Positions 465 to 36,838 of a stretch of DNA of 64,000 nt are shown here, piece after piece (positions within the stretch are counted from its first letter, which is position 1; each line of letters begins with the position of its first letter). The translations under genes and the position numbers were made by a program. The DNA is from Hyphobacterium sp. CCMP332 (GTDB lineage Bacteria > Pseudomonadota > Alphaproteobacteria > Caulobacterales > Maricaulaceae): positions 2,569,501 through 2,633,500 of the forward strand of contig NZ_CP058669.1 of the NCBI RefSeq assembly GCF_014323565.1, in the 5' to 3' direction. The notes under the pieces were generated by a model, which searched no databases, had not been told where the DNA came from, and saw only the letters and a program-made list of their open reading frames with translations.

Positions 465-917
465 TCAGTCCCGGGCCTTGTCGAAAACGGTCCTGAGCTT
501 GGTGAGAAACGGCAGGGCCGCCGCCGCCTCGTCCGCAGAGATGTTTTCGGCGATCGGCGCCAGTGCCGGGACCGCCATCATCAGTGCTTCATTTCTGCGG
601 GCGAGGCCCGCGGGCGTCAGGCTGACCTGCTTGCTGCGGCCATCGTCCGGGGCCGGTTCGACGCAAACATAACCCTTCGCTTCCATCCGTTTGACCGTAT
701 TGGTGATAGCGCCCTTGGTGACCTGCAATGCGCTGGCCAGCCGGGCCGGGCTCCAACCGCCGCCCAGGCGGGCGAGGTGATGTAGCAGAGTAAAGTGCGA
801 CAGCCGCATATCATCAGGCAGAACACGTTCAAAAGCAGTCGAGCTCAGCTGATGGATAATTCCGATCTCGGTGAGGACAGAAAACAGGTCATCCGGGGGG
901 GGAGGAGAATCGCTCAT
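465..917 (-). CDS. MarR-family transcriptional regulator
   Basis: This 150-residue protein has a typical MarR winged-helix layout. There is an N-terminal dimerisation helix, a helix-turn-helix around residues 55-85 (SPARLASALQVTKGAITNTV), and a wing containing the DGRSKQVSLTP strand-turn (DxRxxxVxLT is the family signature). It starts 9 bp after the stop of the nitroreductase gene, so the two are very likely one transcript. The palindrome upstream of that operon is the likely autoregulatory operator. The ligand is unknown; many MarR repressors paired with nitroreductases respond to quinones or nitroaromatics, but that is inference. Confidence 0.85.
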   Translation of the reverse strand: MSDSPPPPDDLFSVLTEIGIIHQLSSTAFERVLPDDMRLSHFTLLHHLARLGGGWSPARLASALQVTKGAITNTVKRMEAKGYVCVEPAPDDGRSKQVSLTPAGLARRNEALMMAVPALAPIAENISADEAAAALPFLTKLRTVFDKARD

Positions 918-926
918 CCGGCCAGC

Positions 927-2072
927 TTACGCGCTCTCACGCAATCGGGTCTCCAGCGGCCAGCGGGGCGCTTCAGATACCGGGCGGGCATATCCCAGAC
1001 GCGCGAGCATCTGTAGCGTCCCACCCTCGGGTGCGAGCCGCTGATGCACCTCGCGATACAGCTCGGCCATCTCCGGGTATTCCTGCAGGGACTGGCTCAT
1101 GGGCTGCATGGCCAGGCCGTCGCGAGTCGCGGACAGTGCCGCCCGCAGATAAGCTGCACCGGCATCAATCTGCTCCGCGCGGGTATTGCTGCTCGTTCGC
1201 ATCCAGAAGAACGCCATGGCGGTTTGCGACCAGCCTGCCTGCATGGACAGGCTTTCGCCAAAGGCGCGATGATCGGGATCAGCCATGGTTTCGGTCGTCA
1301 TGATGCCCGCTATTTGCAGCGCCTCCATCATGGCACCCGTAATGGCTATGCCGTCGGGATGGGCCTCGATCTGGCGGCGGCCGATCCGCATCACATCGAG
1401 GCTCTCCTGCCACGTCGCGGGGGTGATCTGCTCAACCCGGCTCGCCTCCTGACACAGGGACCGCAACGCATCGCGGCGCGCCCCGCTTGCGACAAAGCCC
1501 GTCGATAGACGGTCTCCAGCGGCTGTTTGCATGGCGGCCAGCGCTGTTTCCGGTACATCTCGTTCAGTGTCGTAGGGGTTTCGATTGGTGCGGCGGTCCG
1601 GAATGAAGGCAAATAGGGGGTCGGCCTCGCCGCCCGGCGTCAGGGACATGCGCGCGACGGGGCGCTGATCGAGACGCGGCTGAGGCTCGCCTTCCGGGAA
1701 AACCTCGACCTCTGCAGCAAAACCGTCTTCGGCGGCGGCCTGCCGGAATATTTCCAGAAAACACCCAAGCCCGATGGTGATCTGGCGATCAAAGGGGTCC
1801 GTCTCAGGGAGCCGCCTGTCCATATCGCAATACAGCACGGCCTCCGTCTCGCTGATCAGGTCGACGATCCAGGGCTGCCGGTTGTGCGGGTTCGGTGCCA
1901 GAACCGCCCAGGACAGGGCGCGCCGCATCGGGTCTGGATAGCTACCGGCATTGCGCCAGGGCGCTCGGGCTCCAACGGGCTCGCGGGTTAATACGAAGCC
2001 GGTTCCGGCAGCCGCCAGAATGACGGCCGAGCTGCCGAGAATTTGCAGAAAGCGGCGACGGGAAGATGTCAT
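927..2072 (-). CDS. Acg/nitroreductase-like FMN-dependent oxidoreductase, Tat-exported
   Basis: This 381-residue protein begins with a twin-arginine leader (SRRRFLQ followed by a hydrophobic stretch), so it is probably exported folded with its cofactor. The region around residue 55 (LAPNPHNRQPW) is the FMN-phosphate-binding N-terminal motif of the nitroreductase fold. Later segments (PDRRTNRNPYD, and QAGWSQTAMAFFWMRTSSN) match Acg-family proteins. It is the first gene of a two-gene operon with the MarR regulator. The reaction is unknown; NAD(P)H-dependent reduction or flavin sequestration are both possible for the family. The ATG directly precedes the Tat motif. Confidence 0.75.
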   Translation of the reverse strand: MTSSRRRFLQILGSSAVILAAAGTGFVLTREPVGARAPWRNAGSYPDPMRRALSWAVLAPNPHNRQPWIVDLISETEAVLYCDMDRRLPETDPFDRQITIGLGCFLEIFRQAAAEDGFAAEVEVFPEGEPQPRLDQRPVARMSLTPGGEADPLFAFIPDRRTNRNPYDTERDVPETALAAMQTAAGDRLSTGFVASGARRDALRSLCQEASRVEQITPATWQESLDVMRIGRRQIEAHPDGIAITGAMMEALQIAGIMTTETMADPDHRAFGESLSMQAGWSQTAMAFFWMRTSSNTRAEQIDAGAAYLRAALSATRDGLAMQPMSQSLQEYPEMAELYREVHQRLAPEGGTLQMLARLGYARPVSEAPRWPLETRLRESA

Positions 2073-2086
2073 ATCACACCTTTAAA

Positions 2087-2122
2087 GTTTAACGTTAAAC
2101 GATTATTGGTTTAACGCTCAAC
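2087..2122. promoter_or_regulatory. paired palindromic operator upstream of the nitroreductase-marR operon
   Basis: A perfect 14-bp palindrome GTTTAACGTTAAAC lies at 2087-2100. A related copy, GTTTAACGCTCAAC, lies at 2109-2122. The starts are 22 bp apart, about two helical turns, so two dimers could bind the same face. The site is just upstream of the nitroreductase ATG (2072) in an AT-rich patch, which is where an autoregulating MarR protein would bind. Binding itself is inferred. Confidence 0.6.
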
Positions 2123-2228
2123 TATTGTCAAGGCGCAGCGTTGAACCGGGGTAGAAGCGTGCCTAGATTGGCGTTACACGACAGCGAGTCGCAGACGTGT
2201 TCGTTTCATCCATTGCAGGAGCCGCCCC

Positions 2229-3629
2229 ATGTCCGAAGTCTATGATGTCGTCATTATCGGCGGTGGTCCCGGCGGCTATAACTGCGCCATCCGCGCCGGA
2301 CAGCTGGGGCTGAAGACGGCTTGCGTGGAAATGCGCGAGACGCTCGGCGGCACCTGCCTGAATGTCGGATGCATCCCGTCCAAGGCCTTGCTTCATTCAT
2401 CGGAATTGTATGAAGCCGCCGCGAAGGATTTCGAGGGGCTGGGCATCAAGGTGAACGGGCTGAGCTATGATCTGCCGAAGATGATGGAAGGCAAGGCCGA
2501 GGCCGTGAAGGGCCTCACCGAGGGTGTCGCCTTCCTTCTGAAGAAGAACAAGGTTGACCATATTCGCGGCAAGGGCCGGATTGCGGGCAAGGGGAAAGTC
2601 GAAGTCGACGGCCCCGACGGCAAGCAAACCCTTGAGACCAAAAACATCGTGATCGCGACAGGCTCGGAGGTGACGCCTCTGCCCGGCGTCGAGATTGACG
2701 AGGAGCGGATTGTTTCGTCCACCGGTGCACTGGAATTGAGCGAAGTGCCGAAAAAACTCGTCCTGATCGGGGCGGGCGTGATCGGCCTTGAGCTCGGCTC
2801 GGTCTGGCGCCGCCTGGGTGCCGAGGTGACGGTGGTTGAATATCTCGACCGCATTCTGCCCGGCATCGACAGCGAAATCGCCAAACAGGCCCAGCGCATT
2901 TTCAAGAAGCAGGGCTTTGCTTTCGAGCTGGCCCGCAAGGTGACCGGCATCGAGAAGACCGGGGACGGCCTGACCATTGCCACCGAGGCCGCCGATGGCG
3001 GCAAGGAGAAGTCCTTCGAGGCGGATGTCGCCATCGTCTGCATTGGCCGGCGGCCCTATACGAAAGGGCTCGGGCTGGAGAATGTCGGAATCGAGCCGGA
3101 CAAGCGCGGCTTCATTGCCAATGATCAGTTCCAGACCAGCGCCGAAGGCGTCTGGGTTGTGGGCGACTGTACCCACGGGCCCATGCTGGCGCACAAGGCC
3201 GAGGATGAAGGCACAGCCTGCGCCGAGCGCATCGCCGGCAAGGCCGGGCACGTCAATTACGGCGCCATTCCGGGCGTCGTCTATACCCACCCGGAAATTG
3301 CCTCGGTCGGCGCCACCGAAGAAAAGCTGAAGGAAGAGGGCCGCAAATACAAGACCGGCAAATTCTCCTTCATGGCCAATTCCCGGGCGCGGGCGAACCA
3401 TGAGACCGACGGCATGGTCAAGCTGCTGGCCGATGCCGAGACGGATGAATTGCTAGGGGCCCACATGATCGGCAAGGGTGTGGGAGAGATGATCGCCGAG
3501 CTTTGCCTGGCGCTGGAATTCCGGGCGTCGTCGGAAGACATAGCCCGCACCTCTCACCCGCACCCGACCATGACCGAAGCCATCCGGCAGGCGGCGATGG
3601 GCGTCGAGGGCTGGACGATGCAGGCGTAA
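2229..3629 (+). CDS. lpdA: dihydrolipoyl dehydrogenase (E3)
   Basis: This FAD/NAD flavoprotein re-oxidises dihydrolipoamide in 2-oxoacid dehydrogenase and glycine-cleavage complexes in the cytoplasm. The 466 residues match the usual length. An FAD-binding GGGPGGYNCA motif lies near residue 11. The redox disulphide is C43/C48 in GGTCLNVGCIPSK. A second Rossmann motif (GAGVIGLELGSVW) binds NAD. The C-terminal dimerisation domain ends with the catalytic His-Glu motif HPHPTMTEA. No E1/E2 genes are adjacent. A GGAG ribosome-binding site precedes ATG 2229. Confidence 0.97.
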   Translation: MSEVYDVVIIGGGPGGYNCAIRAGQLGLKTACVEMRETLGGTCLNVGCIPSKALLHSSELYEAAAKDFEGLGIKVNGLSYDLPKMMEGKAEAVKGLTEGVAFLLKKNKVDHIRGKGRIAGKGKVEVDGPDGKQTLETKNIVIATGSEVTPLPGVEIDEERIVSSTGALELSEVPKKLVLIGAGVIGLELGSVWRRLGAEVTVVEYLDRILPGIDSEIAKQAQRIFKKQGFAFELARKVTGIEKTGDGLTIATEAADGGKEKSFEADVAIVCIGRRPYTKGLGLENVGIEPDKRGFIANDQFQTSAEGVWVVGDCTHGPMLAHKAEDEGTACAERIAGKAGHVNYGAIPGVVYTHPEIASVGATEEKLKEEGRKYKTGKFSFMANSRARANHETDGMVKLLADAETDELLGAHMIGKGVGEMIAELCLALEFRASSEDIARTSHPHPTMTEAIRQAAMGVEGWTMQA

Positions 3630-3791
3630 AAAAAAACCCATTCTGACAAAAAGTTCAGAACGCGAATCAGCAAATCATGCTATAAACGCCCCCGTCAGGC
3701 TGGCGTTTGCGAGGCGTTCTGGTCTGTGTTCGGACAATGAGATTTTTCGGCGGCTATGTTGCAGGCCGCCTTGCTGTGCAGGATGTCGCCC

Positions 3792-16153: not shown

Positions 16154-16555
16154 ATGGCTGACAAACTTCATTTTGACCTCGTTTCTCCCGAACGCCGCCT
16201 GTTCCAGGGCGATGTCGACATGGTGGTGGTCCCTGGCGAAGAGGGCGATTTCGGTGTCCTTCCGGGTCATGCGCCGGTGATGAGCGCGATCCGGTCCGGC
16301 GCGATTTCCGTCCATGACGGCTCCGATGTGCGCCGAACCTTCATTCATGGCGGTTTCGCCGAGGTCACGCCGGAAGGCCTGACCGTGCTCGCCGAGGAGG
16401 CCATCGATCTGGCGGCTGTTGATCGCGATCAACTGGCGAAGGACCTGACCGATGCGCGCGAGGATATCGGCCTCGCCCGCAATGATCTCGAACGCCAAGT
16501 CGCCGAAGCCAAACTTGCCAAGTTCGAGGCGCTGACCGAAGCGCTGAACGGCTGA
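16154..16555 (+). CDS. atpC: ATP synthase F1 subunit epsilon
   Basis: This 133-residue protein has the N-terminal beta-sandwich (LHFDLVSPERRLFQGDVDMVVVPGEEGDFGVLPGHAPVMSAI) that contacts the c-ring and a C-terminal helical hairpin (DLTDAREDIGLARNDLERQ). It is separated from atpD by a terminator and an unrelated gene, so it probably has its own promoter in the 90 bp upstream. A second, divergent C-terminal fragment of an epsilon subunit lies at 17091-17207. Confidence 0.95.
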   Translation: MADKLHFDLVSPERRLFQGDVDMVVVPGEEGDFGVLPGHAPVMSAIRSGAISVHDGSDVRRTFIHGGFAEVTPEGLTVLAEEAIDLAAVDRDQLAKDLTDAREDIGLARNDLERQVAEAKLAKFEALTEALNG

Positions 16556-16851
16556 TCGACTTTCTCATCTCTCTCGGCCTGACAGATTTCATCGGCTTTG
16601 CCGGCGTCGCCTGCGTCCTGTTTGCCTATTTCTGGCAACAGACAAGGGGCGTGAGCGATGATGACTGGCGCCATCCGGTCATCAATGGTGTGGGTGCTGT
16701 GCTCTTGCTGATCTCTTTGATCTACAAGCCCAACCCGGCCTCTATCGCGATTGAATTTTCATGGTTTGCAATCAGCCTGATCGGGCTCGTCAGGGCGCTG
16801 AAGAATCGTCAGCGCGCGAAAGCGGAAAACGCCTCCACCACTTCTTCATAG
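16552..16851 (+). CDS. small two- or three-helix membrane protein (CBU_0592-like), non-ATG start
   Basis: The open frame directly after atpC encodes LIDFLISLGLTDFIGFAGVACVLFAYFWQQ, then WRHPVINGVGAVLLLISLIYKP and FSWFAISLIGLVRAL. The pattern of an IGFxGVxxxLxAYF helix followed by a second and a third hydrophobic stretch matches small CBU_0592-type membrane proteins of unknown role. No ATG exists for the full frame. GTG 16651 would lose the first helix, so translation more likely starts at CTG 16552 or ATC 16555, coupled to the atpC stop. Its last 14 codons run into the rppH-derived repeat. Confidence 0.5.
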   Translation: MIDFLISLGLTDFIGFAGVACVLFAYFWQQTRGVSDDDWRHPVINGVGAVLLLISLIYKPNPASIAIEFSWFAISLIGLVRALKNRQRAKAENASTTSS

Positions 16852-17093
16852 ACGGCACGTTTCCAGTCGATGATGAGCGGCGGAATATTCGCCAGCTTCT
16901 CCCATCGCCATTCGGCAAATTCCTGTGGCGGGACAGCCGTCAGATCGAAATCCGCGTCGCGTCCGGTGAACCGGAAGGCAAACCAGCGCTGTTTCTGGCC
17001 TTTCCATTTATAGCGTTTCTGGTCGGGCCGCGGCGGCAGGCCAGGCGGAAAATCATAGGCAATCCAGTGATCGATCGCGCCGAGAAGCTCCAG
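16809..17093 (-). pseudogene. rppH: 3' fragment of rppH (duplicate)
   Basis: On the minus strand this encodes the last 93 or so residues of the Nudix hydrolase found intact at 19926-20417, from LELLGAIDHWIAYDFPPG to EAFSAFAR. It has its own stop (TGA) where the intact gene has TAG. It lacks the Nudix box, so it cannot be functional. Upstream it fuses out of context to the atpC remnant. It probably marks the original rppH 3' end next to its original neighbour. Confidence 0.85.
16811..17093. repeat. 283-bp direct repeat, copy A (rppH 3' end)
   Basis: This stretch matches 19928-20210 base for base except for one T/C difference that I could see (near 16987 versus 20104). The flanking bases diverge at once on both sides. 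The two copies are in the same orientation, 3117 bp apart, and bracket the AraC-amidohydrolase segment. Confidence 0.9.
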
Positions 17094-17207
17094 GAACTTA
17101 AGAATGCCCAGGAAGACCTTGGCGTCGCCAAATCCGATGTCGAAGTCAATCAGGCCCGCGAGCGCGTCGTCCGTCTTGAGGCTATGCGGAGTGCTGTCGC
17201 AAACTGA
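17091..17207 (+). pseudogene. atpC: C-terminal remnant of a second, divergent atpC
   Basis: In frame to TGA 17205-17207, the plus strand encodes LKNAQEDLGVAKSDVEVNQ followed by a charged helix ending EAMRSAVAN. It aligns without gaps to the C-terminal helix of the intact AtpC (LTDAREDIGLARNDLERQ...EALTEALNG): A-x-ED-x-G-x-A-x-x-D-x-E positions match, with about 12 of 37 identical and most others conservative. The N-terminal sandwich is absent. It is not a copy of the local gene but of a distant orthologue, so the DNA starting here came from the equivalent locus of another bacterium. Confidence 0.7.
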
Positions 17208-17242
17208 GCCGGCCCGCGCAGACTGACTAAATGAAGATTTTT

Positions 17243-18244
17243 CTATTCGGCCTTGCTGTCCGGAGCATGACAATGCGCCTTGCGCCAGGCGCTCGGCGTT
17301 TCGCCGGCCACATCGTTGAACGCCTTGTTGAAGTTGGAACGGGTCTGGAAGCCGCAATCGAGCATCAGCTCGACCAGCGGCCGGGCCGGATCTGCCTGAA
17401 TAAGGCGCTGGGCCTCAGCGATGCGCCAGCCATTGATCCAGCGGCTGACGCTGACCCCGAAGCGGTCATTGACAGTCTCCGACACCGTGCGCTGCGGCAG
17501 GCCGAGCTGGCGCGCGAGGCGCGCCACGGTTAGCTCTGCGTCGAGCCAAGGACGCGTCTGGGACATATGGACCTCAAGCCGTTCCTGGACCTGCTCGGAC
17601 CGTGCACCCCCGCGTTGGATCCGCGTCACAATCCAGCTCAAGGGACCGGTCTGGTTCAGGCTGGTCAGCACCAGATAGGCAAGGAAGAACAGGAAACCGG
17701 CCATCGTGAATACCAGGGCGCGTGACTGTCTCAGATTATCGCTTTCGGCCAGCTCGACCATGACGAGCCCATCGGCGAGTGCCATCAGGATGAGCCAGCC
17801 GCTCACCATGTATTTCCAGCGCCGAGCGGCGGGCAAGGCGGCCTTGATGTGGATCAGGCAGAGACCGCAATAGAGAACGAGGCTGAGAATGATGACCACG
17901 TCGAGATAGGCCCCGCTCCCGACAATTTGCCGTGCCAGGGCGAGGCCGGCCGGACCGGTGAGGTGGATCAGATCCCGCGCCGATGGCGTTTCGTCCGGCT
18001 GCGTGGTCGAGCGCAGATGCAGGTAGATGACCGGTGCAAGGGCCATCGCTAGGACCGGTCGCCACCAGACCAGTGGGTTACCGATCTCCATTACCGCCAG
18101 ACTCGTTAGTAGATGCTGGGTCGCAAACAAGGCAAATACCACGGCCAAAAGCCTGTGTGCCAGTTTCGGCTCCGATCGCAGATTGGCCAGAAAGACGGCC
18201 ATGATCGCCGAGAGTGCAGCGGAGATGTGGAGAACAGACAGCAT
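17243..18244 (-). CDS. membrane-anchored AraC-family transcriptional regulator
   Basis: This is a 333-residue protein. The N-terminal two thirds form about seven hydrophobic segments (residues 1-215), and the C-terminal ~100 residues form an AraC/XylS DNA-binding domain. Its two helix-turn-helix motifs are LTVARLARQLGLPQRTVSETVN and the ELMLDCGFQTRSNFNKAFNDVAG signature, then ETPSAWR. Such proteins usually sense a signal in or near the membrane. It is divergent from the amidohydrolase at 18369 with a 124-bp shared control region, so it is a likely regulator of that gene. It lies inside the acquired segment. Confidence 0.85.
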   Translation of the reverse strand: MLSVLHISAALSAIMAVFLANLRSEPKLAHRLLAVVFALFATQHLLTSLAVMEIGNPLVWWRPVLAMALAPVIYLHLRSTTQPDETPSARDLIHLTGPAGLALARQIVGSGAYLDVVIILSLVLYCGLCLIHIKAALPAARRWKYMVSGWLILMALADGLVMVELAESDNLRQSRALVFTMAGFLFFLAYLVLTSLNQTGPLSWIVTRIQRGGARSEQVQERLEVHMSQTRPWLDAELTVARLARQLGLPQRTVSETVNDRFGVSVSRWINGWRIAEAQRLIQADPARPLVELMLDCGFQTRSNFNKAFNDVAGETPSAWRKAHCHAPDSKAE

Positions 18245-18368
18245 CCAGACTTGATAAGGCGTCTCGGCCCCGTGGCCAAGATCACGTTTTGATCTGTCCT
18301 CAATCGCGTTTCAGGGCGCATGCGGGGCAAAACCCGGCTTTTCTGGCGTCACCGCAAAGGAGGCCCAA

Positions 18369-19892
18369 ATGACTCATCCGCTCGCCCGTTCCCTTTTTGC
18401 CATTGCTACTTTCCTCGGCCTGGCTCTGACCCAACCGGCATTTTCGCTGTCGGATTCCGATGTCGATCTCGTGATTCTGAACGCGACCCTGATCAGCCCC
18501 GAGCGGGCCACGCCGCTACAGGATGCCTGGGTGAGAGTGAGTGGCGACCGCATTATTGAGGTTGGCAGCGGAGCCATTGATGTGGGCTCTGCGCAAGTGA
18601 TTGACGCCAATCATGGATACCTGATCCCGGGTCTGATCGACAGTCATGTCCATCTCTATCATGCGACCGGATTGCGCGCCCGCTACACTGATGACCACGT
18701 CGCGCTCTACCGCGGCTATATGGAGCAACAGCCTCGCAGCTTCCTGTTCCACGGCTTCACCACCGTGATTGAACTCAATGCCGATGCGGAGACCAATGCC
18801 CGCTTCGAAGCTGCCCCGCTTCACCCCCATCTGGTCCATTGCGGCCAGGGGGTCGCACTGTCGGATGGCTTCATGGCGCTCGAACTCGAAGGCGTACCGA
18901 TTGGGGATGCCTATCCCGGCTATCTGATCGATCACTATGCAGGTGGCCTCATCCCTGACGGCGCAGACCCCGCGGCGCACACGCCTGAGGCCGTTGTGGC
19001 GTCAGTTGTCGATCAGGGCGGCCAATGCATCAAGCTCTACTACGAAGAGGCCCTGTGGTGGCCTGAAGGCGCGCCAGCCTTCCGTTTGCCCTCGGTAGCG
19101 ATCGTGCGTGACGTGGTTGCGGCAGCCCATGCGGCCGGCTTGCCGGTCCTGCTCCATGCGACCACGCCGGCTGGCTATGAGTTCGCCCTCCAGTCGGGTA
19201 TCGATATTCTGGCCCACGGCATGTGGGAATGGACCGGCCAGTCTTTCACCGACCCCCAGCCCTCCGCGCGCACTGCGGAAATAGCCTGGCGCGTTGCCCA
19301 TTCTCGCATTGCGGTGCAGCCGACCATTGAGACCATCCGAAATACGGCCAGCCTGTTTGACGCGTCCGTGCTAGCGGATACTGGCTGGGTCGATGCGGTG
19401 CCCGCGGCCTATCTCGACTATTTGCGCGGTGAGGCCCAGGTTCAGCGCGAGGATTTTATTGCCATGTTCGGCGCCACGACCGTCGAGGGGAGCGGCAGCG
19501 ATGATATGGGCGCCGCGCAATCGGCATTTCTGAACCGGTATGAAAACCTGCTTTCGGGGATGTATGCCGAAAATTCCCGCCTCCTGTTCGGCACCGACAC
19601 GGCCGTTGGCGGCTTCGGCTGGGCCTCCCCTCCTGGACTGGCAGGGTATTGGGAAATGCAGAACTGGGTCGATACTGGCATCACGCTCCAGTCCTTGTTC
19701 AGGGCGATGACGATCAATAATGCCGCTGCCTTTGGTCTGGGCAACGAGATTGGTACGATTGAGCCGGGGAAGCGCGCGGATCTCTTGATCCTCCGGTCCA
19801 GTCCGCTGCTTGATGTCGCGGCCTATAATCAGATCGATCGGGTAGTTCTGGCCGGCGAAGTGATCGAGCGGTCCAGCCTGTCCGCGCGCTAA
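18369..19892 (+). CDS. secreted metal-dependent amidohydrolase (imidazolonepropionase-like)
   Basis: The 507-residue protein has a signal peptide (ALARSLFAIATFLGLALTQPAFS-like N-terminus). The amidohydrolase TIM-barrel motifs are the metal-binding HxH in GLIDSHVHLYH near residue 95, a likely carbamylated/bridging Lys in GGQCIKLYYEEA, His in VLLHATTPAG and ILAHGMWEW, and the terminal Asp in LLFGTDTAVGG. The final strand EIGTIEPGKRADLLIL is typical of the family. The substrate is unknown; members hydrolyse peptides, lactams or organophosphates. An AGGAG ribosome-binding site precedes the start. It sits between the two rppH repeats. Confidence 0.85.
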   Translation: MTHPLARSLFAIATFLGLALTQPAFSLSDSDVDLVILNATLISPERATPLQDAWVRVSGDRIIEVGSGAIDVGSAQVIDANHGYLIPGLIDSHVHLYHATGLRARYTDDHVALYRGYMEQQPRSFLFHGFTTVIELNADAETNARFEAAPLHPHLVHCGQGVALSDGFMALELEGVPIGDAYPGYLIDHYAGGLIPDGADPAAHTPEAVVASVVDQGGQCIKLYYEEALWWPEGAPAFRLPSVAIVRDVVAAAHAAGLPVLLHATTPAGYEFALQSGIDILAHGMWEWTGQSFTDPQPSARTAEIAWRVAHSRIAVQPTIETIRNTASLFDASVLADTGWVDAVPAAYLDYLRGEAQVQREDFIAMFGATTVEGSGSDDMGAAQSAFLNRYENLLSGMYAENSRLLFGTDTAVGGFGWASPPGLAGYWEMQNWVDTGITLQSLFRAMTINNAAAFGLGNEIGTIEPGKRADLLILRSSPLLDVAAYNQIDRVVLAGEVIERSSLSAR

Positions 19893-19925
19893 ATGGAGGT
19901 TCCAGATCACCAGGCGCTCGAAAGC

Positions 19926-20417
19926 CTAGCGCGCGAAAGCGGAAAACGCCTCCACCACTTCTTCATAGACGGCACGTTTCCAGTCGATGATGAGCGGCGG
20001 AATATTCGCCAGCTTCTCCCATCGCCATTCGGCAAATTCCTGTGGCGGGACAGCCGTCAGATCGAAATCCGCGTCGCGTCCGGTGAACCGGAAGGCAAAC
20101 CAGCGCTGCTTCTGGCCTTTCCATTTATAGCGTTTCTGGTCGGGCCGCGGCGGCAGGCCAGGCGGAAAATCATAGGCAATCCAGTGATCGATCGCGCCGA
20201 GAAGCTCCAGCTGGTCCGGGCGCGCACCGGTTTCCTCATAGGCTTCGCGGCGGGCAGCCGCCTCGGCGTCTTCACCCTTATCCATGCCGCCTTGCGGGAA
20301 TTGCCAGATATGCGGGCCGTCGACATCCGCGCGGCGGCCAATCCAGACAAGGCCTTCGGCATTGAACAACACGACGCCGGCATTGGCCCGGTGTTGCGGA
20401 TAGGGGTCGTCCATCAA
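19926..20417 (-). CDS. rppH: RNA pyrophosphohydrolase (Nudix), intact copy
   Basis: RppH converts 5'-triphosphate or diphosphate RNA ends to monophosphate, triggering RNase E decay. The 163 residues have the N-terminal RANAGVVLFNAEGLVWIGRR strand, a complete Nudix box at residues ~43-65 (GGMDKGED, then REAYEETGA), and the family-specific PPGLPPRPDQKRYKWKGQKQRWFAFRF segment. The gene overlaps the end of yibQ by 4 bp (ATGA), as in other alphaproteobacteria. Its last 94 codons are the repeated segment, so the 3' end may have been rebuilt during the insertion. Confidence 0.93.
   Translation of the reverse strand: MMDDPYPQHRANAGVVLFNAEGLVWIGRRADVDGPHIWQFPQGGMDKGEDAEAAARREAYEETGARPDQLELLGAIDHWIAYDFPPGLPPRPDQKRYKWKGQKQRWFAFRFTGRDADFDLTAVPPQEFAEWRWEKLANIPPLIIDWKRAVYEEVVEAFSAFAR
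19928..20210. repeat. 283-bp direct repeat, copy B (within intact rppH)
   Basis: This is the second copy of the stretch at 16811-17093. It forms codons about 70-163 of the intact rppH. The base before the repeat differs (T here, C in copy A), which changes the rppH stop from TGA to TAG. Confidence 0.9.
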
Positions 20418-31600: not shown

Positions 31601-32627
31601 TTACCGGAAGCCGAATTTTCGTTCCTGTTGGTCCCAATCAAAGGGGATTCCGGAGCGCACGATGCGTTCAAGACTGAGATCGGGCGGCTGGGTTCCGGTC
31701 AGGATCGCTTCCTGGATACGCGGTGACAGGAAGGCGAGATTGGCCCGCACGCGTATGAAGGCATCGGAGGTCTTTTCTGACCTGGCGATAGTGGCCGCTG
31801 AAACCCCGGCCTTCATCTGCTCAATCCATCGATGAGATTTGGCGAGCGTTGATACCAGGGTCGGGTCCGGGGCCGGCTTCATGTCACCGGCCACGATCCG
31901 GGTTTCGACACCGCGCCGGCGGGTCGCAAATGGCGTGGTCATGACCAAGGCGTTGTCGTCGATCTGATCGAGCGGTAAATTGAAACGCGCTGCCAGCGCT
32001 GCCTTGTCGAGGCGGATGTCCAGTTGCCCTGAGGCGATGGCCACCCGGTCGACCAGCAAGCAAAACTCGGCAGCGGATGTGCTCGAAGCCGAACCCCCAA
32101 GTTCTGCCGCCAGATCCGCGCTCGCACTAGCGGCGTCTTTCAATAATGTGCGTCGATTTCCGGCAGTGGTCAGATGGCTCCGAACCGCCTGGCCGATGGT
32201 TTCTTCAAGGGCGGGCGCAGGTAGACGCCAGGCGGAACCGTTGGTCGACGCCCCTCTGGACGTCGAAACATAATAGCGATGCGCCTTACCGGATTTCCCG
32301 CGTGTGTGGGTTGGTGTCAGACGGTTTCCATGCGCGTCAAACACGCGGCCCGACAGGGGTGATCGGGACCGCCCTGATGCTGACACGGTGCCGCGTGGTT
32401 TGCGACCATTGATGGTGAGCTTGTCCTGGACGCGGTCAAAGAGGTCTGGGTCGATGATGGCATCGTGCTGGCCTGGATAGACATTATCTCGGTGGCGGAC
32501 CATGCCTGCATAGATCGGGTTGGTGAGGATGAAATGGATCTGGCCGCGCCGTAGTGGCTCACCACCATAGGTGACCCCGCTCTTGAACTGGCGGGGCTTG
32601 GACAGAATTCCTGCCTCGAGCGGGTGT
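31601..32627 (-). pseudogene. large serine recombinase, C-terminal part only
   Basis: The minus-strand frame encodes LRRGQIHFILTNPIYAGMVRHRDN and IIDPDLFDRVQDKL, the recombinase-domain end of large serine recombinases. It continues with HTRGKSGKAHRYYVSTSRG (zinc-ribbon region without clear cysteines) and a ~200-residue C-terminal region. The catalytic N-terminal resolvase domain with the active Ser is missing: the frame is open up to 32627, where the IS1111 element begins. The insertion therefore cut the gene. It is probably the integrase of an element once placed near tRNA-Ser. Confidence 0.75.
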
Positions 32628-32647
32628 TGTCATGTGTGGACGGCCCC

Positions 32648-32900
32648 CGTTTAGCAAGGGTTGATTTGGGTGACTTTTGATCATTGCGGGTTGCGGTCAT
32701 GTGTCCGGCCTATTGACGCGGTAGCGATGACCGCTGGCCCTGATGAAGTCCGCGTGCTGAGATCCCTCTCAGAGGATCGAGCTCTTACGCCCTGACAACG
32801 CCTCGGGTTTTCCTCAGCTGCGGCCCCGTTTGATCATCATCACTTACATCTGCCCTCGCATCTCTTCAGCGGTGCCGTGTGGGCTACCGCATGCTCTGTT
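32648..32900 (-). ncRNA. candidate IS1111 seek/bridge RNA region, copy 1
   Basis: This 253-bp stretch between the transposase stop and the subterminal repeat has no supportable ORF. It can form stems: GCGGTCAT at 32693-32700 pairs with ATGACCGC at 32727-32734, and GATCCCTCT at 32761 can pair with AGAGGATC at 32771 with one bulged base. In IS1111-group elements the guide RNA is encoded on the 3' side of the transposase, which is the case here. The RNA itself is inferred; its ends are unknown. Confidence 0.5.
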
Positions 32901-33923
32901 TCACACCATTGCAGGTGCCCGATAGGTCTCGCCGCGTGCCAGCACCGCCCAGGCGATGCGCGCGGTCTTGTTGGCCATCGCCACAGTGGCTACGCGTGCC
33001 GGCTTGCGCTCCAGCAGACGCCTGACCCAGTTGCCCGTTGCCGACGTGTTGGTGCCAACGCGCCGGATGACCGAGGTCGCCCCCACCACAAGAAGCCTGC
33101 GCAGATATCCATCGCCCATCTTTGATATGCACCCCAGACGGTCCTTACCACCCGACGAGTTCTGGCGTGGCACCAGCCCAAGGAAGGCGGCGAACTGGCG
33201 TCCGGACTTGAACACCGATGGGTCGGGTATGCTCGCGGACAGTGCGGTCGCCGTGATCAGGCCTACGCCAGGTATGGTCTCCAGTCGCTGACTGGTTTCA
33301 TCTTCGCGGTGCCAGGCCATGAGCCGACGCTCCAGTGCACGGATCTCAGCCGCCAGATTATCGAGCTGGGCCATCAGGCTGCTCAGGGCCGAGCGAGCGA
33401 TGTCTGGCAAGCCGGGCATCTCCTCATCGCGCATCGCTTCGAGCAGAGCGGCCAGCTTGTGTGGACCCTGCGCTGTGATGATGCCGAACTCGGCCAGATG
33501 GCCGCGGATCGCATTGAGCACCATGGTGCGTTGGCGCATCAGGAGATCGCGCGTCCGGTGCAGCATCATCACACCCTGGCGCTGCGCACTCTTGACCGGA
33601 ACAAATCGCATGGTGGGCCGCGTCACCGCCTCGCAGATCGCCTCAGCATCAGCCACATCATTCTTCTGACGCTTGACGTAGGGCTTCACATAGGCCGGCG
33701 GGATCATCTTCACCTTATGGCCCAATGCGCCGATCTCGCGGGCCCAGAAATGGGCTGTGGCGCAAGCTTCCAGCCCGACCAGGCAGGGTGGCAGGTCGCG
33801 CAGGAAATCCAGAACGCCATTCCGGCGCAGTTTCTTGCGGAACAGGACTTCACCATGCGCGTCAACGCCGTGAAGCTGAAAAACAGATTTGGCCAGATCA
33901 ATGCCGATTGTTGTAAGAGTCAT
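32901..33923 (-). CDS. IS110/IS1111-family transposase (DEDD), copy 1
   Basis: From MTLTTIGIDLAKSVFQLHGVD the protein has 340 residues. The RuvC-like DEDD domain is shown by D8 (IGIDLAK), E near residue 48 (LVGLEACATAHFWAR) and the KNDVADAEAI motif (D-x-x-D). The C-terminal Transposase_20 domain is IPGVGLITATALSASI and FKSGRQFAAFLGLVPRQNSSGGKDRLG, with a Ser-containing SKMGDGYLRRLLV segment. Such enzymes move circular intermediates guided by an element-encoded RNA. All key residues are present, so it is probably active. An upstream ATG at 34007 lies in the element end and is less likely. Confidence 0.93.
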   Translation of the reverse strand: MTLTTIGIDLAKSVFQLHGVDAHGEVLFRKKLRRNGVLDFLRDLPPCLVGLEACATAHFWAREIGALGHKVKMIPPAYVKPYVKRQKNDVADAEAICEAVTRPTMRFVPVKSAQRQGVMMLHRTRDLLMRQRTMVLNAIRGHLAEFGIITAQGPHKLAALLEAMRDEEMPGLPDIARSALSSLMAQLDNLAAEIRALERRLMAWHREDETSQRLETIPGVGLITATALSASIPDPSVFKSGRQFAAFLGLVPRQNSSGGKDRLGCISKMGDGYLRRLLVVGATSVIRRVGTNTSATGNWVRRLLERKPARVATVAMANKTARIAWAVLARGETYRAPAMV

Positions 33924-34051
33924 CGTGGACGGTTCCTTCCGTTGCTGCTGTCTAACAGCTCCAGCATGGCACATTGCGATGCCGTAGGTCGGGGCCGTCC
34001 ACCCCATCAGAAGAAACCCCTCGTTAGCGGATTGCCCAATATTTTTGCCGA

Positions 34052-34750
34052 ATGAGAAATCCGTTCCGCTATTTCAAGACGTCACCTGAAGTGATCCGAC
34101 TGGCTGTGATGATGTACGTCCGGTTCCCGTTGTCGCTACGGAATGTTGAAGACCTGCTGCATGAGCGTGGCATCGATGTTTGTCATGAGACGGTGCGCTT
34201 CTGGTGGAACCGGTTCGGCCCAATGTTTGCCGGAGAAATCCGCCGGAAGCGGGCGGACCGCCTTCGCGCCTGGCCGCAGTGGCAATGGCATCTGGACGAG
34301 GTATTTGTGAAGATAAATGGCGAGATGCACTACTTGTGGCGCGCCGTTGACCACGAAGGTGAAGTGCTCGAGGCCTATGTGACGAAACGCCGGAATCGTA
34401 AAGCAGCACTACGTTTTCTGCGGAAAGCGATGAAACGATACGGTCGTCCAGAAGTCATTGTTACCGATCGGCTGAAGTCCTATCGGGCGGCCATGAAGAC
34501 CATCGGAAACGAAAGTAAACATGATGTCGGGAGGTGGCTCAACAATCGGGCCGAGAACTCGCATTTACCGCTACGAAGGCGCGAGCGAGCCATGCTCCGG
34601 TTCCGACGAATGCAAAGTCTCCAGAAATTCGCCGCCGTCCATTCCTCCGTCCACAATCACTTCAATCTCGAACGCCACATCAATGACCGGAACTGGTTCA
34701 AAGAGAACCGGCAAATCGCCCTGACCGAATGGCGGCAGCTTGCCGCCTAA
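34052..34750 (+). CDS. IS6-family transposase
   Basis: A 232-residue transposase of the IS6/IS26 type. It begins FRYFKTSPEVIRLAVMMYVRFPLSLRNVEDLLHERGIDV (helix-turn-helix) and continues ETVRFWWNRFGPMFA. The DDE core follows: D in WHLDEVFVKINGEMHYLWRAVD, D in VIVTDRLKSYRAAM, E in NNRAENSHLPLRRRERAM. It is full length and looks intact. No terminal inverted repeats could be fixed with confidence, since the left side is cut close to the IS1111 copy 1 end. Confidence 0.9.
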   Translation: MRNPFRYFKTSPEVIRLAVMMYVRFPLSLRNVEDLLHERGIDVCHETVRFWWNRFGPMFAGEIRRKRADRLRAWPQWQWHLDEVFVKINGEMHYLWRAVDHEGEVLEAYVTKRRNRKAALRFLRKAMKRYGRPEVIVTDRLKSYRAAMKTIGNESKHDVGRWLNNRAENSHLPLRRRERAMLRFRRMQSLQKFAAVHSSVHNHFNLERHINDRNWFKENRQIALTEWRQLAA

Positions 34751-35043
34751 ACCGACGAAACCTGCCAGTCTGAGACCAGTTCGCTTTGGTCTGACAACAC
34801 CAGTCAAAGAATTCGGTAAAAGTGTATTCCAAGCCGAAAAGGCTAGCGTGAAAGCAACGAGAGTGCCTATGAGGAGCAAAAGGCCGATAGAGTGATTGCG
34901 GACTGCTACAATGAACCGGCGTAGAATCATAATCATGCCTCTTTGGGGCAAGGCTCGTCCGGTTGCGCGGCGCAAAGCCATTGCGAACGAAAGTCATAAC
35001 GTAGACTTTTGCCATTTCTAGCGTTTTTATTTGTCGAGGGGGC
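34751..35043. other. non-coding remainder of the IS6 unit
   Basis: This 293-bp segment between the IS6 transposase stop and the second IS1111 copy has no supportable gene on either strand. It is more AT-rich than the chromosome and ends with TTTATTTGTCGAGGGGG directly at the IS1111 end. It may contain the IS6 right end plus older flanking DNA. Confidence 0.4.
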
Positions 35044-35063
35044 TGTCATGTGTGGACGGCCCC

Positions 35064-35316
35064 CGTTTAGCAAGGGTTGATTTGGGTGACTTTTGATCAT
35101 TGCGGGTTGCGGTCATGTGTCCGGCCTATTGACGCGGTAGCGATGACCGCTGGCCCTGATGAAGTCCGCGTGCTGAGATCCCTCTCAGAGGATCGAGCTC
35201 TTACGCCCTGACAACGCCTCGGGTTTTCCTCAGCTGCGGCCCCGTTTGATCATCATCACTTACATCTGCCCTCGCATCTCTTCAGCGGTGCCGTGTGGGC
35301 TACCGCATGCTCTGTT
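35064..35316 (-). ncRNA. candidate IS1111 seek/bridge RNA region, copy 2
   Basis: Same sequence and same predicted stems as the segment downstream of the copy 1 transposase. If the RNA acts in trans, copy 2 could still supply guide RNA although its transposase is broken. Inferred from element architecture only. Confidence 0.45.
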
Positions 35317-36338
35317 TCACACCATTGCAGGTGCCCGATAGGTCTCGCCGCGTGCCAGCACCGCCCAGGCGATGCGCGCGGTCTTGTTGGCCATCGCCAC
35401 AGTGGCTACGCGTGCCGGCTTGCGCTCCAGCAGACGCCTGACCCAGTTGCCCGTTGCCGACGTGTTGGTGCCAACGCGCCGGATGACCGAGGTCGCCCCC
35501 ACCACAAGAAGCCTGCGCAGATATCCATCGCCCATCTTTGATATGCACCCCAGACGGTCCTTACCACCCGACGAGTTCTGGCGTGGCACCAGCCCAAGGA
35601 AGGCGGCGAACTGGCGTCCGGACTTGAACACCGATGGGTCGGGTATGCTCGCGGACAGTGCGGTCGCCGTGATCAGGCCTACGCCAGGTATGGTCTCCAG
35701 TCGCTGACTGGTTTCATCTTCGCGGTGCCAGGCCATGAGCCGACGCTCCAGTGCACGGATCTCAGCCGCCAGATTATCGAGCTGGGCCATCAGGCTGCTC
35801 AGGGCCGAGCGAGCGATGTCTGGCAAGCCGGGCATCTCCTCATCGCGCATCGCTTCGAGCAGAGCGGCCAGCTTGTGTGGACCCTGCGCTGTGATGATGC
35901 CGAACTCGGCCAGATGGCCGCGGATCGCATTGAGCACCATGGTGCGTTGGCGCATCAGGAGATCGCGCGTCCGGTGCAGCATCATCACACCCTGGCGCTG
36001 CGCACTCTTGACCGGAACAAATCGCATGGTGGGCCGCGTCACCGCCTCGCAGATCGCCTCAGCATCAGCCACATCATTCTTCTGACGCTTGACGTAGGGC
36101 TTCACATAGGCCGGCGGGATCATCTTCACCTTATGGCCCAATGCGCCGATCTCGCGGGCCCAGAAATGGGCTGTGGCGCAGCTTCCAGCCCGACCAGGCA
36201 GGGTGGCAGGTCGCGCAGGAAATCCAGAACGCCATTCCGGCGCAGTTTCTTGCGGAACAGGACTTCACCATGCGCGTCAACGCCGTGAAGCTGAAAAACA
36301 GATTTGGCCAGATCAATGCCGATTGTTGTAAGAGTCAT
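35317..36338 (-). pseudogene. IS1111 transposase copy 2, broken by a one-base deletion
   Basis: Identical to the copy 1 protein up to VGLEA; there the one-base deletion changes frame so that the 5' part reads into a short wrong tail. The remaining 274 residues are open from an internal ATG at 36141. The catalytic D-x-x-D and C-terminal domains are in the second part, without the first catalytic Asp. It is presumably inactive unless complemented by copy 1. Confidence 0.88.
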
Positions 36339-36426
36339 CGTGGACGGTTCCTTCCGTTGCTGCTGTCTAACAGCTCCAGCATGGCACATTGCGATGCCGT
36401 AGGTCGGGGCCGTCCACCCCATCAGA

Positions 36427-36838
36427 GGAAACTCGGTGTTAGCGGGTTGGGCGATATTTTCGCCGGATGAACAAGAACTCATTTCTCTATTTCAAGACGT
36501 CGCCAGAGGTCATCCGATTGGCGGTCATGATGTATGTGCGCTTTCCGCTCTCGTTACGAAACGTCGAAGACCTGTGACCTGCGCCCCTTGGCTCCCTCGT
36601 TTATTTCGAGAGTCTGAGCCGCGAGACAGTGCGCTTCTGGTGGAACCGGTTTGGGCCGATGTTTGCCGCAGAGATCCGCAGAAAGCGCGCCGATCGGAGG
36701 CGCGCCTGAAACGCATTGTTCTGTCCGCGCTCTGGCCGCGCCGCCCCGTCCCGAAGTTATTCGGGCCGGAATCACCCGAGGTCATTCGCCTGGCGGTGGC
36801 GAAGTATGTCCGGTTTCCGCCGTCGCCTGCGTACTGAC
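36427..36838 (+). pseudogene. decayed IS6-family transposase fragments
   Basis: From ATG 36467 a frame encodes FLYFKTSPEVIRLAVMMYVRFPLSLRNVEDL and stops at TGA 36575-36577. It is the same N-terminus as the intact IS6 transposase, about 40 bp from the IS1111 end just as in the first unit. After ~45 unrelated bases a second piece (RETVRFWWNRFGPMFAAEIRRKRADRR) ends at a stop near 36710. A third piece (ESPEVIRLAVAKYVRFPPSPAY) follows at about 36770-36838 and is again the N-terminal region, so at least two different IS6 copies are represented. None is functional. Confidence 0.75.

What the first reader, a model, noticed from the sequence alone, without database searches (positions are those of the whole stretch)
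16811..20210. Acquired AraC-amidohydrolase segment bracketed by two almost identical copies of the rppH 3' end
A 283-bp stretch is repeated at 16811-17093 and 19928-20210 with one visible mismatch. Copy A is a dead 3' fragment of rppH; copy B is part of the intact gene. The rppH stop is TGA in copy A and TAG in copy B, so the copy B end looks like a replacement that restored the gene when foreign DNA arrived. Between them are a membrane AraC regulator and a secreted amidohydrolase that have no place in the usual atpC-rppH neighbourhood. No transposase, integrase or tRNA is involved. This looks like single-ended homologous recombination, or a Campbell-type insertion, that duplicated the target.
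Basis: partly seen in the sequence, partly recalled or inferred. Interest (0 to 1): 0.78.

Follow-up and report, generated by a model that had tools for sequence, protein, structure and literature searches.

The report
Duplicated gene end scars horizontal gain
A bacterium appears to have picked up two genes from a related genus at the matching chromosomal site, and the joining event duplicated the end of a neighbouring gene, so that two overlapping native genes both survived; it is a clear natural example of a known kind of DNA integration accident.

Summary
The insert (atpC tail - araC - amidohydrolase - up to the rppH stop) is colinear, at 69.5% nt identity, with the same interval of Maricaulis salignorans, another genus of the family, where the order is atpC-araC-amidohydrolase-rppH. 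None of 7 held congeners has the AraC gene; 5 of 7 have a small membrane-protein gene between atpC and rppH. So foreign DNA from the allelic locus was joined inside rppH (J1, after base 17093) and at the rppH stop (J2, 19926-19937). The duplication kept alive two native convergent genes that overlap by 43 bp: the membrane gene ends in copy A, rppH in copy B with a donor-like TAG. Both copies look recipient-type throughout, against a plain one-step Campbell insertion of the foreign fragment; a second, within-species step, a crossover at the stop itself, or later conversion is needed. Known mechanism class, unusually legible scar; moderate interest.

The parts
16154..16555 (+). native atpC (133 aa)
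   Evidence: ATP-synt_DE_N 4e-28; 87-92% aa identity to 4 congeners
16552..16851 (+). native small membrane-protein ORF ('mem', membrane character judged by eye), stop TAG 16849-16851, start codon uncertain; its last codons overlap copy A
   Evidence: 80-84% aa identity in 4 congeners at the same place; differences concentrated in codon position 3 (e.g. 16/8/36 against L057); only weak Pfam hits below cut-off
16811..17093 (-). repeat copy A: recipient-type rppH 3' end (stop TGA, complement 16809-16811), no 5' part
17091..17207 (+). foreign atpC 3' tail: 38 codons starting with the CAG shared with copy A (17091-17093), foreign for certain from 17094, stop 17205-17207
   Evidence: 74% aa identity to the M. 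salignorans atpC tail; resident and congener atpC ends clearly different
17091..17094 (.). junction J1: base 283 of the repeated rppH end joined to donor atpC; CAG possibly shared, longer imperfect match with some Maricaulis atpC genes
17243..18244 (-). foreign AraC-type regulator, 333 aa, HTH_18 at the C terminus, hydrophobic N-terminal half (by eye)
   Evidence: HTH_18 1.6e-18; 63% aa identity to G103 = M. salignorans; not found in 7 of 7 congeners at E up to 1e-20
18369..19892 (+). foreign amidohydrolase, 507 aa, apparent signal peptide (by eye)
   Evidence: Amidohydro_1 1.9e-22; sister to M. salignorans in tree, SH-aLRT 99; H93, H95, K222, H263, H283 and D410 invariant in 6 sequences
19926..19937 (.). 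junction J2 at the rppH stop: CTAGCGCGCGAA as in M. salignorans; its last 10 bp AGCGCGCGAA are shared with the recipient-type end in copy A
19928..20210 (-). repeat copy B: 3' part of intact rppH
19926..20417 (-). intact rppH (NUDIX hydrolase, 163 aa), recipient type, donor-like TAG stop
   Evidence: NUDIX 1.5e-26; 83-88% aa identity to 4 congeners; per 40-bp block 68-97% nt identity to 4 congeners, 42-82% to 5 Maricaulis

Best explanation
Duplicative, one-ended integration of DNA from the allelic locus of another genus. The recipient had atpC-mem-rppH, with mem and rppH convergent and overlapping by 43 bp. A fragment of ultimately Maricaulis-like origin (broken inside atpC, running through araC and amidohydrolase to rppH) became attached on the rppH side at the homologous position, and its broken atpC end was joined illegitimately 283 bp inside rppH. 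Because the right arm starts again at the rppH stop, 283 bp were duplicated, so mem keeps its end in copy A and rppH its end in copy B. Shown: donor-type colinearity, junction positions, recipient-type copies, preserved overlapping genes. Inferred: the order of steps and the recombination machinery. I lean to two steps: first a conspecific strain took the donor segment as a replacement (anchor in the atp genes, joint at the rppH stop); then a fragment of that strain's DNA, now with recipient-type rppH, integrated in this strain by a single crossover or one-ended joining. The confidence given is for the general claim; I put the two-step version at about 0.4 and list the one-step versions as rivals, so their odds lie partly inside the 0.8.
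For: Donor-type arrangement atpC-araC(-)-amidohydrolase(+)-rppH(-) in G103 = NZ_FNHG01000001.1 M. salignorans, colinear with window 17091-20411 at 69.5% nt. Foreign atpC tail beside J1. Amidohydrolase tree of 24 rows: sister to M. salignorans, SH-aLRT 99. AraC in 0 of 7 congeners, 5 of 19 Maricaulis genomes at E up to 1e-30. atpC-mem-rppH in 5 of 7 congeners (L003-L006, L016). Copies 282/283 identical and recipient-type. At J2 10 bp shared with the M. salignorans rppH end. Precedent: in E. coli 56 of 60 recombinant clones gave the PCR product diagnostic of a duplication, and 14 sequenced ones had 109-950 bp duplicated, attributed to a single crossover with a shortened, re-ligated molecule (PMC3240628; passages, discussion section).
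Against: The actual donor is not in hand (nearest is 75% aa identical in the amidohydrolase), so junction homologies are estimated from relatives. No conspecific genome was available to show the intermediate of the two-step version. The similarity before J1 is strong only for some Maricaulis atpC genes (background windows scoring as well, of 4020: L055 and L140 2, L053 6, L145 31, L144 64, L143 79; but L052, the nearest relative, 649, and L054, L056, L138, L139, L141 827 to 3703). In the last 40 bp of rppH the recipient type is least clear (0.68-0.78 to congeners, 0.53-0.68 to Maricaulis). The recipient's comEC is split over two frames, so competence of this strain today is doubtful.
Confidence: 0.8

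Rival explanations
1. One-step Campbell insertion: a circularised Maricaulis-like fragment (atpC tail ... amidohydrolase - 283 bp of its own rppH) integrated by one crossover in rppH, later smoothed by gene conversion.
For: Gives exactly this order of parts and a 283-bp duplication; E. coli precedent for such products (PMC3240628).
Against: Donor rppH should leave a foreign tract in copy A towards J1 and in copy B towards the stop; both copies look recipient-type and are 282/283 identical. Conversion in both copies would be needed.
Confidence: 0.15
2. One-step homology-facilitated illegitimate recombination, for example between sister chromosomes, with the crossover lying in the 10 bp shared at the rppH stop and the other end joined at J1.
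For: Needs no conversion; 10-bp shared patch at J2, some short similarity at J1; PMC3240628 states that 3-10 bp of micro-homology are usual at the illegitimate joint (passage).
Against: The usual product carries a deletion, not a duplication (PMC3240628); the homologous anchor would be only about 10 bp, since resident and Maricaulis rppH are 42-82% alike per 40-bp block.
Confidence: 0.3
3. Capture of a foreign fragment at a long staggered break, filled in and ligated, so that the repeat is a target-site duplication.
For: Would also duplicate the target without a mobile element (general reasoning, no call).
Against: No Ku match at E up to 0.001 in this genome or 4 relatives; does not explain why the fragment comes from the same atpC-rppH locus, nor why J2 falls on the homologous rppH stop.
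Confidence: 0.05
4. Assembly artefact or contamination.
For: No reads could be examined here.
Against: Donor-type and recipient rppH share no 283-bp repeat that could mislead an assembler (42-82% per 40-bp block); the genome is one contig, 99.63% complete and 0.23% contaminated; the insert differs from its nearest held relative by 25% (amidohydrolase) and 37% (AraC) of amino acids.
Confidence: 0.03

Closest known systems
Single crossover of a shortened, re-ligated linear molecule (E. coli lacZ system, PMC3240628; passages and discussion section seen)
   Same: Insertion with a direct duplication of the homologous end, 109-950 bp there, 283 bp here
   Different: There an engineered plasmid-lacZ system; here a natural scar whose insert comes ultimately from another genus
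Homology-facilitated illegitimate recombination, HFIR (as described in PMC3240628 and PMC5361080, passages seen; the 2002 Acinetobacter and pneumococcus papers are not held)
   Same: One end attached at homology, the other joined illegitimately at short similarity; no mobile element
   Different: Duplication instead of the usual deletion; a homologous anchor cannot be shown because both copies are recipient-type
Vibrio cholerae T6SS effector-immunity arrays (PMC5361080; passages seen)
   Same: Allelic-locus cassettes added beside resident genes with remnants kept, explained there by an HFIR-like process
   Different: There the resident effector is displaced; here no gene is lost and 283 bp are duplicated
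Transformation-made merodiploids in Streptococcus pneumoniae (PMC3784515; passages seen)
   Same: Donor-directed unequal joining between sister chromatids gives duplications
   Different: Duplications of about 100-900 kb there

Membership tests
Homology-facilitated illegitimate recombination | Incoming DNA homologous to the recipient at one end | tested here: inconclusive
   Donor-type interval is the allelic one and ends at rppH, but only about 10 bp of shared sequence at J2 is visible
Homology-facilitated illegitimate recombination | Illegitimate joint with little or no homology at the other end | tested here: met
   J1 joins rppH to atpC; CAG plus, for some relatives, an imperfect longer match
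Homology-facilitated illegitimate recombination | Deletion of recipient DNA (the general product according to PMC3240628) | tested here: not met
   atpC, mem and rppH all present and open as in congeners; 283 bp duplicated instead
Single crossover of re-ligated linear DNA (Campbell type) | Insert flanked by direct repeats of the homologous target | tested here: met
   283 bp, 282 identical
Single crossover of re-ligated linear DNA (Campbell type) | Copies are donor/recipient hybrids | tested here: not met
   No evident Maricaulis-type tract in either copy; fits only if the immediate donor was conspecific or after conversion
Transposon or integrative element | Transposase or integrase within the insert | tested here: not met
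   Only atpC tail, araC and amidohydrolase between the copies; no tRNA within 9 kb

The most novel reading that the evidence does not exclude
Duplicating integrations are a selected route of gene gain at sites where two convergent genes overlap: a plain insertion there breaks one gene, whereas one that repeats the overlap keeps both, so such short direct repeats would be a recognisable class of transfer scars without mobile elements. The atpC-rppH interval of this family would be one such hotspot.
Probability: 0.15. Interest if true: 0.6.

Novelty: new member of a known kind. Interest (0 to 1): 0.4.

Why it matters
Gene gain without mobile elements is often inferred from trees alone. Here both junctions, a donor-type locus, the recipient-type locus and the duplicated target can all be read, so the mechanism can be reasoned about base by base. 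It also shows how a duplication lets foreign genes enter a site where two native genes overlap.

Tried and rejected
Closer donor: two genome-contig scans; with the AraC query 26 stretches matched a pattern but none encoded a relative, the amidohydrolase alignment gave 47 loci, none closer than M. salignorans at 75%. Foreign composition: GC of the insert's parts (0.57-0.62) does not stand out from the window (0.614), so composition is no evidence. Using the mismatch to tell which copy is older: 3 of 4 congeners carry T and 1 of 4 C at the site, undecided. Ku-dependent end joining: no Ku. Gene transfer agent as carrier: GTA_TIM not found in this genome though present in 4 of 4 relatives searched; comEC split over two frames, DprA present; the carrier remains open. 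J1 similarity test: the first script stopped with an error after printing 8 of 12 genes; a changed test was then run on 12 of 12 with mixed outcome, told above. The amidohydrolase was not searched in each of the 7 congeners; it gave no match in the loci around rppH of four of them, and G003 had none in the genome. Literature, listings only: one-ended integration and related terms and overlap duplication (0 papers for one wording); this is no proof that the idea is unpublished.

Full report
Observation. Such a repeat is far beyond chance; the 7 other direct-repeat families reported in the same 7 kb are 20-28 nt at 71-86%.

Across and right of the end of copy A the + strand reads QELKNAQEDLGVAKSDVEVNQARERVVRLEAMRSAVAN (17091-17204) and stops at 17205-17207. 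This is an atpC C-terminus, but not of the resident atpC: it is 74% identical to the atpC tail of G103. Left of copy A, between atpC and rppH, lies a small frame that looks membrane-bound by eye (16552-16851), found at 80-84% identity in the same place in four congeners, with differences mostly at third codon positions. In copy A it overlaps the rppH end by 43 bp (16809-16851), and the ungapped alignment shows the same two stop positions in the four congeners.

Recipient state. Of 7 congeners held (two of them only 69% and 88% complete), none has the AraC gene at E up to 1e-20. In 5 of 7 atpC, mem and rppH stand together; in the other 2 atpC is not within 1.5 kb of rppH (L012, L017). Flanks of the insert are recipient-type: 80-85% nt identity to four congeners over 0.7-1.1 kb on either side, rppH included.

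Donor state. In an even draw of 299 genomes of the order, the AraC at E up to 1e-30 was found in this genome and in 4 others, all of one genus, g9; the amidohydrolase at 1e-60 in 12 of 299, this genome included. There the order is atpC(+)-araC(-)-amidohydrolase(+)-rppH(-), and the window aligns colinearly from 17091 to 20411 at 69.5%. Within g9, 5 of 19 genomes carry the AraC and rppH was found in 18 of 19. One of these lies at a contig end (G157). Of the 17 others, 5 have atpC next to rppH (matched ends 73-93 bp apart; L015, L117, L122, L123, L129), 5 have araC and amidohydrolase (G103, G138, G166, G201, G313), 1 keeps fragments of both (G070), 1 shows the amidohydrolase at a contig start (G309), and 5 hold other material of about 1.1-3.3 kb (G118, G311, G108, G312, G310). 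In G166 the pair is in the other order. So the atpC-rppH interval is variable in this genus. The contents of the last five were only partly read and not searched for integrases.

The amidohydrolase tree (24 rows, quick method, SH-aLRT only) puts the window protein beside M. salignorans with 99, then a Maricaulis MAG with 95. Of the 28 loci examined (L064 and L091 are the same place), 11 show an AraC match near the amidohydrolase, six of them with no atpC in the stretch held, so the two genes tend to go together; that the regulator controls the enzyme is inference.

Junctions. J2: copy B reads CCTAGCGCGCGAA at the rppH stop, M. salignorans ACTAGCGCGCGAA, recipient-type copy A GTCAGCGCGCGAA. The TAG is as in M. 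salignorans; the 10 bp AGCGCGCGAA are common to all three. J1: the last rppH bases CTCCAG run into GAACTTAAG; CAG is present at this atpC codon in 7 of the 10 Maricaulis genes in which located it. The 36 bp before J1 resemble the corresponding atpC stretch of some Maricaulis unusually well (L055 and L140: 2 of 4020 background windows as good; L053: 6; L145: 31; L144: 64; L143: 79) but not of six others, M. salignorans included (649 to 3703 of 4020). Since twelve genes were tried, not all independent, and the true donor is unknown, I treat this as suggestive of micro-homology, not as shown.

Mechanism. An account must give (a) same-locus origin, (b) J2 at the homologous rppH stop, (c) J1 illegitimate, (d) a duplication rather than a deletion, (e) no evident foreign rppH tract. 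Block-wise identity of rppH is mostly higher to congeners than to Maricaulis, the first 40 bp at the stop being the least clear (0.68-0.78 against 0.53-0.68). A one-step Campbell insertion explains a-d but not e, unless conversion followed. A one-step one-ended integration with the crossover in the last 10 bp explains all but has a tiny anchor. Two steps, replacement first in a conspecific strain and then a within-species single crossover with a shortened, re-ligated molecule, explain all, and the lone mismatch is then ordinary strain variation; the cost is an extra event and an unseen intermediate. I rank the two-step version first, not decisively. The E. coli study is a close laboratory precedent: 56 of 60 clones gave the PCR product diagnostic of a duplication, 14 sequenced ones had 109-950 bp (PMC3240628, passages, discussion).

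Consequence. The duplication is what lets both overlapping native genes survive: mem ends in copy A, rppH in copy B. An insertion without duplication of at least the 43-bp overlap would have truncated or altered one of them (reasoning from the sequence). Whether selection picked this product is untested.

Carrier. DprA is present, the ComEC gene is split over two frames in this genome, the gene-transfer-agent marker GTA_TIM is not found here but is in G003, G006, G103 and G166, and Ku is not found in any of the five. How the DNA entered is therefore open.

Verdict. It is a natural member of a known class of events, unusually well preserved.

Noticed in passing
window 31601-36708: Two near-identical stretches about 2.4 kb apart (300 nt at 99%, 291 nt at 96%, 86 nt at 83%) whose ORFs look like IS110-type and IS6-type transposases, beside an ORF (31601-32503) that looks like a serine recombinase end (names judged by eye, not by a search).
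   Followed up: partly
G000:C1:896334-897168 (L135): comEC is split over two reading frames in this genome but open in congener G003: a real lesion or an indel error.
   Followed up: partly
whole genome G000: The gene transfer agent marker GTA_TIM is not found here although G003, G006, G103 and G166 have it.
   Followed up: no
L144 3219-3673 (G070, Maricaulis): Fragments of araC and amidohydrolase between atpC and rppH, a sign that the pair also decays at this site.
   Followed up: partly
L138-L141, L143 (Maricaulis): The atpC-rppH interval holds various other material, e.g. an alpha/beta-hydrolase-like ORF (by eye) in G118 and G310 (L116, L119): a small insertion hotspot between convergent core genes.
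   Followed up: partly
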